NCBI GenBank assembly: GCA_026707405.1
Contig: JAPOWW010000001.1
Coordinates: 1 to 64,000, forward strand
Source of the DNA: Chloroflexota bacterium
GTDB lineage: Bacteria > Chloroflexota > UBA11872 > VXNJ01
Reading direction: 5' to 3'
Length of the DNA: 64,000 nt
Shown: piece after piece, positions 43,809 through 51,227 of the stretch
How the letters are laid out: every line of letters begins with the position of its first letter
How positions within the stretch are numbered: position 1 is the first letter of the stretch
Made by a program: the position numbers and the translations under genes
Notes under the pieces: model-generated
What the model was told of the DNA's origin: nothing
Databases searched by the model: none
What the model saw: the letters and a program-made list of their open reading frames with translations, nothing else

Positions 43809-46800
43809 CTAGACAAGACCGTCCGAGCACACGATTCGTATTACTTGTGGCTCCTGTGCTTGAGGCTGGTCCGAGTCGTCGGGCGGGTTAAGACGGTACC
43901 GCTCGCGCAGCGCGTCGAGCCGGGTCCGCAGCGCTCGGCCCTCGAGCTGCAGGTTTTTTATTTCTCCCAAGGCGTTCTCGACTTGCTGAGTCAGGTCGCC
44001 GAGGAATATTCGTCGCAGGTCTTCGATGCGTCGCCGCTCCGAGGCATCTTGCCCGGCCTCGTTCATGGCCATCCTGAGGTGCTTGGAGATATACCGGCGC
44101 GCCTGCGTGTCGCGCGGCCGTCTGGCCCTACCCAGCCGCCTACCGAAATCCGATCTGAACGCCTCGAACGCCGCCATTACCCGTTCGTTGGTATCGCTAG
44201 GCAACTCTTGGGCAGGCGTATCGCGTTCGCATTCAGCCGCCGCCACAAACTGGGAAGGACTGATAGCCCGAGGCTGTAGGTCACCGGCCACGGCGTAGCA
44301 TCCCTTGACCTCTCCAACGCTGAGCAGCACAAGCGTCTCTCCAGCCCTGGGCGGATCGAACGGAGAGACGGCCAACGAGTCTTCTCCCGGCGACACGAGC
44401 GGCATCTGGCTGTCTTCGATCTCCAAAGCGCCTTGCAGATGTAGGACACCGACTGGCTTCTGCGGTTCCCCAGCTAACGTCAATGCCGACCGTATCCCAT
44501 CCGGCAGGTTCGTGATCGTCTTCCACAGGTCCGGATCGTCGTCCTGGATGCGCTGAAGCAGCGCAACAGCACGCTGATGGGCCGCGATCTCGTCAAGGCC
44601 ATCGTCGATGTCGGGCAGTTGCTTGCCTTCATAGATGCTGTACATAGCCTTGACATTCAGCCGCTCGGCATCCGAGAGCAGCTTGCTGTCCAACCCAATC
44701 AGGTCGTGAAACAACTGGATTCGCCTATTGAGGCGCTGCGTCAGGGAAAGCTCTTTATCGACCTCCCGGTCGGGCCACATGTTATTGAGGTTTATCGCGT
44801 CGTATTCAGTGCCGATGCGGTCGACGCGCCCGAACCGCTGAATCAGACGGACGGGGTTCCAGTGCAAGTCGTAGTTCAGTACGCGGGCGCAGTCTTGCAA
44901 GTTCTGCCCTTCCGAGACGATATCAGTTGCGAGCAATACTCTGATTTCCGGGCCGGGCAACCTTTCGCCATCACCCAGGTTCCAGGTCGGCGAGAATCGC
45001 TTCACAATGGACTCCGCGTCGTTTCGGGTATTGCCGGTGAGCCGGGCGATTTCGCGGTTGCGGCCGCCAGGGTTCAACTCGCGGTACAGATACTCGATGG
45101 TCGTTTCGGCCTCCGAGAAGATCAGCACTTTGCCCGACTTGACCTCCGGGAGATCGAGAAACTCCCACAACGTTTGGAGCTTGTCGTCGTCTTCGGGGCC
45201 TATATCGACAACACGCTCCATCACTTCCTGCAGCAAGGCGTGGTCGGCGTCCAGATTTTCAATCCAGTCCGCTGTATTGAAGTCATCGGTTGTATGGACC
45301 AGCTTGCTATTCCGGTCACCGCCCATTTGCCTGCGACGTTCTTCCTGACCGAGTACTTCCAACAGATCGTCGGCGTCGAACGACTGACCGGAAAGTAGCC
45401 GAGTAGCGGTGGCGCCGATGGGCACGTAGCCCGCTTCCAGCGCCTGCTTGAAGTTGCGGTTGCTGTTCATGAGCGAGCTCAGCGTGGAGCGAAACGCCTC
45501 TATGCTTGATTCCAGCCGCTTAAGAAGAAGCACTCCCATCAGCCTGGCTATACGGTCGCGGGCCCTGAACAGATCGCGGTATTCCGGTTTGTGCTTTTCT
45601 TCCTCTTTTATGTATTCGGTGACTCTGTATCTAGCCCCAGCGTGTTGCGCCAGCAGGGCCTCGATCTCCTCAAGCGAGCCAGCCTTCGCATACACCTTGT
45701 CGAGTTGGTACGGCACGTTATCCAGCAACGGTTCCGGGAACCGCACGGCTTTACCATCTATGGCCGCAGTATCGCCGTATAGCTCCGTTATGTCCTTGCG
45801 GCGGCGGCGGATGAACACCGATGAGAGAACCTCTTCAATCTCGGCCTTTGGCACGGATGGCGGCTGGGGCTTGTTCATTGGGGGCGCGCCGATCCGACCG
45901 CCAAGAAGCCATGCGACGAATTCCCTTACGTAGTTCTCATGGTCGGCGCGGTACTCCAGCCATCGCCGAGCGTTCTGGAAGTATTGCTCAAGGCTGACGG
46001 GTTCTATATTCAGACCGTGCGCCGTGTCGTCCAGGAACAGCGTGATCTGCCGGTATATGTCCATCGGTCCCAGGTTCTGGGGCGTGGCGCTGAGCAGGAC
46101 TACTTTATGGTCGCCTGCCTCAAGGTACTCACGTAGGCCTTTCGAGCGTTTGTTGCGGTTGCGGAAGTTGTGCGCCTCGTCTACCAGGACCGGCCCCCGG
46201 TTGGGGAAGTCCTGCTGAAGAATGATCCCTTGCCCCGGTGGCGCGGCGTCCACGTACCGGCCCAGCTCTTCGTCGAACTCGGGGTCTTCAACAGCGCTGA
46301 TCAGGCTGTGCGATACGACTTCGGCCCCGAGTCCAAATCTCTCGTTGAAGTGCTGCCACATGGGCTTGAGTCCGGCGGGGCAGAGGATTAGCGGCGGGCC
46401 GTCGTTTGGATAGCTCACGCGGAGATGACGAAGCAACTCCGCGCCGATGAAAGTCTTGCCGAGGCCAACAACGTCGCCGACATAGCAGCCGCCGTAGGCT
46501 TCGATCATCGCCAGCCCTCGGCTTACGGCGTCTTGCTGGAAGTTAGCCAACGCGTCCAGCGGCGTCAGCGGCAGATCGCCTCCGACCAGACCGGTGTGAT
46601 AAAGCTCGTAGAGCGCCTTGAGGTAGACGTGATAAGGCGGCGTTTGAGCCAGCGCCCAGGAGCGGTCCAACTCGCGCTCCAGCGCCGGGCCGATGTCCTC
46701 GGAATCTTTCCACAGGTCCTCGAACCAGTCGCGCAGCGCTCGCATCTCGGCGTCGCCGGTGACTCGCACGTTCAGCTCGGTGTTGCCGGTGAACCCGGCG

Positions 46801-51000: not shown

Positions 51001-51227
51001 TAAAGAACGTGGACGCCGTCGAGTTCGGCGATGCGCTCGGCGGTCTTCGGGAGCTTGACGCCGGCGGGAGCGGCGGCGAAGTCGACTTGATCCGAATCAC
51101 CATTGAAATCCAGCTTCTCTACGAAAAGCGCGCGGATGGCTTGCGCGCGGTCGGGATCGGAGGCGGCGAAGATCCGCCCGATGTGCTCTTCTACGTCCCG
51201 CGCGTCTTGTGGGTCCTTGAATGGCAT
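48006..51227 (-). CDS. Eco57I/PglX-like N6-adenine DNA methylase (type IIG-like)
   Basis: Motif I VVDPACGSGAYLLGMMQEM; motif IV VVIANPPYVRHEQFGELK; C-terminal TaqI-like specificity region. Confidence 0.88.
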   Translation of the reverse strand: MPFKDPQDARDVEEHIGRIFAASDPDRAQAIRALFVEKLDFNGDSDQVDFAAAPAGVKLPKTAERIAELDGVHVLYVVVDIPETTRVRKAEAVAAAKEIEASLGEDMLLVFTNTSRSQLHFIHPDFGGTQLTLRRMVVERDLPRRTAVQQFSNVYWSYERSGRIREALQEAFDVEPVTRKFFQDYKRVFEAAEALVSGFGPSEDEKKRLFVQTLFNRLMFVYFLSRKGWLTFNGDNDYLKALWTDYRTDIPSPLTGEGRGDHNFYRDRLCHLFFFGLNNPRSSDMNSNFKGRYMESVFGQVPFLNGGLFEKTHLDEQDGVIVPDDAIRPVLTDLFEKFNFTVMESTPFDIEVAVDPEMLGKVFEELVTGRHQSGSYYTPRPVVSFMCREALKGYLEGQGLGASPEAIQEFVDDHKIEGISDQAHGVREALAEIRVVDPACGSGAYLLGMMQEMVDLRTSLDTPELRQNPRYIYDLKLHSIGHNLYGVDNDEFAINIAMLRMWLSLIVDYEGAVPEPLPNLDFKVLRGDSLLGPDPSTTAAPNPDPTSPLRQTELFDYQIAASSLGALKAEYMRKKPGPTKISLRERIKNTEQDLRDALGGVGAPQGSVDWRIAFAEVFAARGGFDVVIANPPYVRHEQFGELKPDLATRFPSVYQGKADILVYFFARAIELMRPGGWLAFITSNKYMRADYGKKLRALLRDSLTIEQVMDFGDLPVFTATSYPAVLIGRNGQAEHRHELRVADLTTPVRIALNERGLSVTPDTVNKAMDGLPALLDRHGHADYPQAFLRQNGWALEDPALIRLFERLMNQGTPLGEFVDGSLYMGVKTGLNRAFVIDRYKRDELVDADPRSAEIIKPYLRGKNIKRWSAEWAGLYIIFTNRGVDIDRYPRVREHLEIYRLNLERRATSHLHPWYELQQPQEGIYEEFARPKIVWPDIAREVRFAFDTKANYLDMTCFTIPTDSRWLMALLNSHLSEFLLCQITSSLRGGFLRPKRQYMTRLPIVTPDPVLQRRLDSIASAGIAGEPVDTDQLNEIVNHLYDLSPADIALINDWFQRRSLTTPQPKAPRTISNR
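50447..50480. repeat. B-type repeat located inside the methylase coding sequence
   Basis: CACCCCTCCCCTCTCCCGTCAAGGGAGAGGGGAT; encodes DIPSPLTGEGRGDH on the minus strand. Confidence 0.92.

What the first reader, a model, noticed from the sequence alone, without database searches (positions are those of the whole stretch)
43809..51227. Candidate three-gene defence operon: N6 methylase, trypsin-like protease, PLD-SNF2 helicase
Seen: three co-directional minus-strand genes, with 11 bp between methylase and protease and a 38-bp overlap (or 8-bp gap with the GTG start) between protease and helicase. The methylase has DPACGSGAYL and NPPYVR; the protease has H39/D74/S154 contexts; the helicase carries both an HKD-type PLD site and full SNF2 motifs. 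Known: Eco57I/PglX-type methylases, PLD proteins and SNF2 helicases co-occur in BREX- and DISARM-like systems. Inference: a serine protease placed between modification and helicase-nuclease subunits is unusual and could act as an activated effector or processing factor. BREX markers (BrxC, PglZ, BrxL) and DISARM DrmA/DrmB were not seen here.
Basis: partly seen in the sequence, partly recalled or inferred. Interest (0 to 1): 0.85.

Follow-up and report, generated by a model that had tools for sequence, protein, structure and literature searches.

The report
Portable protease inside a restriction operon
A DNA-guarding operon (a DNA-marking enzyme plus a DNA motor-nuclease) has picked up a small free-standing protein-cutting enzyme, and the same enzyme family has been picked up separately by several unrelated restriction-type immune operons, which suggests a portable extra weapon or control part for bacterial immunity.

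Summary
In detail: three tightly packed minus-strand genes encode an Eco57I/TaqI_C adenine methylase, an active-looking trypsin-like protease (H39/D74/S154) and an HKD/PLD-SNF2 helicase. The likely helicase start is the GTG at 47303, 7 bp after the protease stop. It is not a conserved three-gene system. The close helicase relatives (59-71% identity), and 27 of 28 helicase loci examined in the phylum, lack the protease; PglZ is absent from the genome. But it is not a meaningless one-off either. The protease belongs to a stand-alone HtrA-fold family without PDZ domain, mostly solo. Relatives sit in or beside Hma operons (HmaA-protease-HmaB-HmaC), a second MTase-Uma2-HKD/SNF2 operon whose orthologues lack it, Type ISP-type MTases, Type I R-M islands and a Type II R-M operon. 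DNA methylases cluster within 3 kb of it (16 of 18; expected 36%). Operonic copies do not form one clade. In other Hma operons the same slot holds a DpnII-type nuclease or AbiJ domain. Best reading: a mobile auxiliary protease effector recurrently recruited by R-M operons. It is related in theme to, but not a member of, the fused trypsin/MBL-nuclease pairs of Tuck et al. 2025. No function was tested. New variant of a known kind.

The parts
48006..51227 (-). adenine-N6 DNA methylase with TaqI-like specificity domain (Eco57I/PglX-like, 1073 aa); first gene
48003..48007 (-). Shine-Dalgarno AGGAG of the protease gene, overlapping the methylase stop codon (TAG 48008-48006)
   Evidence: sequence read
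47311..47994 (-). stand-alone intracellular trypsin/HtrA-fold serine protease, 227 aa, triad H39/D74/S154; G+C 0.52 against 0.60-0.61 of both neighbours
43809..47303 (-). HKD/PLD nuclease-SNF2 helicase fusion from its likely GTG start (1164 aa); the listed ORF extends to a TTG at 47348

Best explanation
The locus is a two-gene restriction-type defence unit (methylase marks self DNA; HKD-SNF2 protein translocates on and cuts unmarked DNA) that has gained a portable stand-alone serine protease in the gap between its two genes. The protease is most likely an auxiliary (backup, probably abortive) effector: made together with the R-M unit by translational coupling, held inactive, and switched on when the unit engages or fails against invading DNA, then cleaving host or phage proteins. 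Shown: gene content, coupling geometry, conserved catalytic triad, absence from orthologous loci, recurrent association of the family with R-M operons in separate branches of its tree. Inferred: activity, trigger, substrate, phage phenotype.
For: Family is recurrent in or beside R-M-type operons: HmaA-protease-HmaB-HmaC in L054, L059, L061, L074, plus a decayed Hma in L056; Eco57I-type MTase (ATGA overlap)-protease-Uma2-HKD/SNF2 in L126=L083, where L127, L129 and L130 lack it; Type ISP-C MTases beside it in L072 (with HKD/SNF2) and L086; HsdM-HsdS-protease...HsdR in L065/L068; N6/N4 MTase-MvaI/BcnI nuclease-protease in L077. 16 of 18 verified DNA MTases within 10 kb lie within 3 kb (p=6e-6; 12 of 14 after collapsing related loci, p=2e-4). 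Operonic copies need at least 4 changes of state on supported branches, and one clade for five representatives is rejected (AU p=0.01). The HmaA-HmaB slot holds a DpnII-MboI nuclease or AbiJ N-terminal domain in other loci, i.e. an effector slot. Catalytic triad nearly invariant. Low G+C against context in 91% of 65 loci (p=1e-10), as expected of a mobile gene. Published precedent for recurrent recruitment of trypsin-like proteases by immune systems (PMC12799240).
Against: In most of the 77 loci no R-M gene is adjacent, so the protease can work, or persist, without one. No other MTase-protease-helicase locus with this exact methylase/helicase pair was found. MTase-proximity counts mix same-strand operons with neighbours on the other strand (L035, L063, L076), and the 3-kb cut-off was chosen after looking. 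Substrate, trigger and toxicity are untested.
Confidence: 0.5

Rival explanations
1. The protease is an independent mobile gene (solo defence gene, prophage cargo or stress protease) that lands often in defence islands, R-M operons included, with no working link to the methylase and helicase beyond shared transcription.
For: Mostly solo with unrelated neighbours; also in prophage-like contigs, phage records and a plasmid near a recombinase gene, beside an integrase in L033; low G+C; partner helicases show no compensating insert.
Against: Translationally coupled insertions inside operons (7-11 bp gaps here; ATGA overlap in L126; 4-bp overlaps next to it in L059, L061, L074) recur in several lineages, more than scattered cargo would give; MTase clustering.
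Confidence: 0.25
2. The protease activates the HKD nuclease-helicase (or methylase) by cutting off an inhibitory part, as trypsin-like proteases activate MBL pro-nucleases in Hachiman and AVAST.
For: Direct experimental precedent for protease-activated pro-nucleases in unrelated systems (PMC12799240); the protease gene lies next to a nuclease-helicase gene here, and in the same operon in L126 and L059.
Against: Helicases from protease-bearing operons have no extra loop against protease-less orthologues (window 1164 aa against 1164, 1164, 1166, 1198; L126 1072 against 1072-1080; only one 1-residue difference), so no gate was gained; the protease-less versions are conserved and presumably work; no MBL nuclease gene is adjacent.
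Confidence: 0.13
3. The protease is a built-in restriction-alleviation factor that destroys the nuclease-motor when it attacks unmodified self DNA, as ClpXP does with HsdR of EcoKI.
For: ClpXP removal of translocating HsdR is established for Type I enzymes (PMC4231737); the protease sits in operons with SNF2-type motors, Type I included.
Against: It also sits behind a Type II R-M pair without a motor (L077) and mostly without any R-M genes; it has no unfoldase or PDZ domain.
Confidence: 0.12

Closest known systems
Trypsin-like protease/MBL pro-nuclease pairs of Hachiman, AVAST, Lamassu and DRT (Tuck et al. 2025, PMC12799240)
   Same: Trypsin-like proteases recurrently and independently acquired by unrelated immune systems; weak sequence similarity of ours to the RT-Protease_XI and LmuA PADLOC models.
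   Different: There the protease is fused to another immune protein and paired with an MBL-fold pro-nuclease. Here it is stand-alone, has no MBL partner gene next to it, and its hosts are methylation-based R-M-type operons, which that paper's main text does not mention.
Hma / Type-1 DUF499-centred BREX-related systems (PMC8565338, PMC12839542)
   Same: SNF2 helicase plus N6 methylase defence unit; relatives of this protease sit between HmaA and HmaB in several loci.
   Different: The window operon has no HmaC/DUF499 ATPase and its methylase and helicase are of other families. The auxiliary effectors catalogued in PMC12839542 are nucleases; its main text never mentions trypsin.
DISARM (class 1: DrmMI, DrmD, DrmA, DrmB, DrmC)
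   Same: Methylase and SNF2 helicase score against DrmMI and DrmD models; PLD domain as in DrmC.
   Different: No DrmA or DrmB at the locus; NCBIfam DrmD score 142.5 against cut-off 610.
PADLOC 'HKD+Snf2' (PDLC01075) with Eco57I-type methylase neighbours
   Same: Best PADLOC match of the helicase (4e-57), with a methylase neighbour in most relatives examined.
   Different: Only the window copy of this subfamily carries the protease.
HtrA/DegS family proteases (MEROPS S1C)
   Same: Predicted fold: best PDB matches are DegS protease domains (E 7e-8).
   Different: No PDZ domain and no obvious signal peptide or membrane anchor in the 227-aa sequence (read by eye); only distant in sequence (best PDB E 1e-5).

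Membership tests
BREX | PglZ (PF08665) encoded | tested here: not met
   No match in the 94.5%-complete own genome
BREX | PglX-type methylase over the NCBIfam cut-off | tested here: not met
   BREX_2_MTaseX 77 bits against cut-off 400
DISARM | DrmD helicase over the NCBIfam cut-off | tested here: not met
   142.5 bits against cut-off 610
DISARM | DrmB (MZB/DUF1998) at the locus | tested here: not met
   The only MZB match in the genome is on another contig, C16
Hma / Type-1 BR | HmaA-HmaB-HmaC (DUF499 ATPase) operon | tested here: not met
   No HmaB or HmaC gene at the window operon; met in L059 by PADLOC models and in L054 and L074 by similarity to it
Trypsin/MBL pro-nuclease pairs (Tuck et al.) | protease fused to a core immune protein | tested here: not met
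   227-aa stand-alone ORF
Trypsin/MBL pro-nuclease pairs (Tuck et al.) | MBL-fold hydrolase gene next to the protease | tested here: not met
   No HxHxDH ORF found in window 33-62 kb; two within 3 kb, none adjacent, in 77 loci (motif search)
Trypsin/MBL pro-nuclease pairs (Tuck et al.) | proteolytic activation of a nuclease | not testable with these tools
   needs biochemistry; the sequence shows no gate in the partner helicase
Trypsin-like / HtrA-fold serine peptidase | H-D-S triad in a chymotrypsin fold | tested here: met
   Trypsin_2 above cut-off; triad in 209 of 212; DegS fold matches
Restriction-modification-type unit (methylase + HKD-SNF2 motor nuclease) | intact methylase motifs, H-K-N PLD site and SF2 helicase motifs | tested here: met
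   restriction and methylation activity not tested

The most novel reading that the evidence does not exclude
A previously undescribed family of stand-alone HtrA-fold proteases is a general 'plug-in' immune effector for methylation-based restriction systems (Type I, Type II, ISP-type, Hma/BREX-related and methylase/HKD-SNF2), acquired many times and triggered by R-M engagement or failure, so that restriction systems carry a proteolytic abortive arm.
Probability: 0.35. Interest if true: 0.8.

Novelty: new variant of a known kind. Interest (0 to 1): 0.6.

Why it matters
Auxiliary effectors catalogued for BREX-related systems are nucleases, and the known recruited trypsin-like proteases are fused to other immune proteins and paired with MBL nucleases. 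A free-standing protease that repeatedly enters R-M operons would extend proteolytic immunity to the commonest bacterial defence class, and gives ready-made natural pairs (same operon with and without the protease) in which its contribution can be measured directly.

Tried and rejected
Dedicated three-gene system: rejected, since orthologous loci L112, L113, L114, L206, L207, L208 lack the protease. BREX and DISARM: rejected. Gating loop in the helicase: looked for by comparing protease-bearing and protease-less orthologues, none found. MBL nuclease partner: none adjacent. Protease in the flanks of 30 DUF1156/HmaB loci of the phylum: none. A search around other phyla for the nearest protease relatives was not possible ('of' needs a G handle). 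The nearest protease relatives (P0002-P0012, 62-75%) are mostly on metagenome contigs whose neighbours could not be read. Literature searches found no paper describing a stand-alone trypsin-like protease in R-M operons; only open-licence papers are held. First region fetch failed on size and one Pfam call on a frame error.

Full report
OBSERVATION. The three genes are real and placed as described. The methylase carries Eco57I and TaqI_C domains, the middle gene Trypsin_2, the last PLDc_2 and Helicase_C. PADLOC puts the methylase nearest to Type IIG enzymes (5e-107) with DrmMI further down (3e-35), and the helicase nearest to 'HKD+Snf2' (4e-57) and DrmD (4e-34). The protease start follows the methylase stop by 11 bp with AGGAG overlapping that stop. 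Orthologous helicases begin at NILHA, so the likely start is GTG 47303, 7 bp after the protease stop. The genes are therefore almost certainly one transcript with coupled translation (inference from spacing).

THE PROTEASE. 2,166 relatives were found, most of the best 120 stand-alone and about 223-248 aa long. H39, D74 and S154 are kept together in 209 of 212 sequences; two have S->A and one is a fragment. The AlphaFold2 model (pLDDT 86.5) matches the protease domains of DegS and other HtrA proteins (E 7e-8, TM about 0.6); no PDZ domain is present in the 227 residues. This is an enzyme family under selection for catalysis, of the HtrA/S1C type, but far from solved members in sequence (best PDB hit E 1e-5). 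PADLOC's nearest models are RT-Protease_XI and LmuA, proteases of other defence systems.

IS THE TRIO A SYSTEM? No. The closest helicase relatives in the class and phylum (59-71% identity: G019, G011, G278, G006, G319) have no protease beside the helicase; only the window copy among 28 helicase loci does. In the sister loci the space between methylase and helicase holds other genes; in L112 an inverted TaqI_C cassette and a tyrosine integrase. Other methylase/HKD-SNF2 pairs in relatives (L115-L118, L120-L122, L131) also lack it. The own genome carries a second such pair on contig C2 (L120), again without protease.

IS THE PROTEASE A RANDOM PASSENGER? Also not simply. A scan of 85,488 species gave 80 loci. 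Most are solo with unrelated neighbours, but a clear minority lie in or beside R-M-type operons. (a) HmaA-protease-HmaB-HmaC in L054, L059, L074 and the diverged L061, several with 4-bp overlaps, and a decayed Hma remnant in L056. (b) L126 (the same sequence as L083): the end of an Eco57I-type methylase overlaps the protease start (ATGA), followed by Uma2 and an HKD-SNF2 helicase; the orthologous loci L127, L129 and L130 have methylase and helicase but no protease, a natural with/without comparison. (c) L072: HKD-SNF2, Type ISP-C methylase, protease 202 bp on; L086: a Type ISP-C methylase before the protease. (d) L065 and L068: HsdM-HsdS-protease with HsdR (Pfam in L065; its homologue in L068) further on, in islands with TIR genes and, in L065, a Piwi gene. 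(e) L077: N6/N4 methylase, MvaI/BcnI restriction nuclease, 70 bp, protease. (f) L085: protease, 98 bp, methylase-HNH fusion.

STATISTICS. Of 18 verified DNA methylase genes within 10 kb of the protease in these loci, 16 lie within 3 kb, where 36% of the searched sequence lies (p=6e-6; 9e-5 if two unverified motif hits are counted as distant). After collapsing related loci, 12 of 14 (p=2e-4) or 12 of 16 (p=0.002). The cut-off of 3 kb was chosen with the data in view, methylases were picked by motif plus Pfam or similarity, and three of the near ones are on the other strand. On the protease tree the operonic copies do not form one group: eight changes by parsimony, at least four forced by well-supported branches, and one clade for five representatives (window, L083, L059, L061, L077) is rejected (AU p=0.01; group named after seeing the tree). 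The protease is poorer in G+C than its surroundings in 91% of 65 loci (p=1e-10; window 0.52 against 0.60-0.61; GC3 0.59 against 0.74-0.76).

HOW IT MAY WORK. In other Hma loci of the phylum the HmaA-HmaB gap holds a DpnII-MboI nuclease (L173) or an AbiJ N-terminal domain (L192). Both are effector or abortive-infection modules, so by position the protease is most simply an auxiliary effector. A helicase-processing role would predict some change in the partner, but helicases with and without a protease neighbour have the same length and no extra loop. Restriction alleviation (ClpXP/HsdR, PMC4231737) fits Type I-like motors but not the Type II operon L077 or the many solo copies. The remaining doubt is whether there is any working link at all; the solo copies, prophage-like contigs and plasmid copy keep the passenger view alive.

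COMPARISON. The closest published work is Tuck et al. 2025 (PMC12799240): trypsin-like proteases, fused to immune proteins and paired with MBL pro-nucleases, were repeatedly taken up by Hachiman, AVAST, Lamassu and DRT systems. The theme, recurrent recruitment of a protease, is the same. The fusion and the MBL partner are both absent here, so the locus is not filed under that family. PMC12839542 catalogues auxiliary effectors of BREX and BREX-related systems (it subsumes Hma) and lists nucleases; its main text has no occurrence of trypsin. I found no description of this stand-alone protease in R-M operons, within an open-licence library.

VERDICT. Observation confirmed; dedicated system not supported; a broader pattern found. 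New variant of a known kind, interest 0.6.

Noticed in passing
L112 8387-10829 (G019) and L113 7784-9411 (G011): Sister loci carry an inverted methylase-like specificity cassette (TaqI_C in L112) next to the methylase; in L112 a 46-nt inverted repeat (80%) links the two and a tyrosine integrase follows, which looks like an invertible specificity switch between methylase and helicase.
   Followed up: partly
window 51517-52219: MNT/HepT toxin-antitoxin pair (GSFARDxxxxxSDVDILV; HepT-like 9e-27) divergent from the methylase gene.
   Followed up: partly
L173, L179, L192 (between HmaA and HmaB): The HmaA-HmaB gap is a variable cargo slot: DpnII-MboI nuclease, unknown 239-aa ORF, AbiJ N-terminal domain.
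   Followed up: partly
L065 5118-18307: Defence island HsdM-HsdS-TIR-protease-Piwi-HsdR in a Nitrospira MAG.
   Followed up: partly
G000 contig C2 273.5-280 kb (L120 9527-16254): Second HKD-SNF2 helicase/methylase pair in the same genome, helicase 30% identical, no protease.
   Followed up: partly
window 35462-35760: Long (GGYGGY)n coding repeat read into the start of an aldo/keto reductase-like ORF.
   Followed up: no
L032 3090-3773 and P0082: One family member has S154 changed to A with H and D kept: a natural, presumably inactive form.
   Followed up: no
L060 and L061: Identical Hma-protease sequence in contigs labelled Gemmatimonadetes and Acidobacteria from the same study: likely a binning error in one of the two MAGs.
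   Followed up: no
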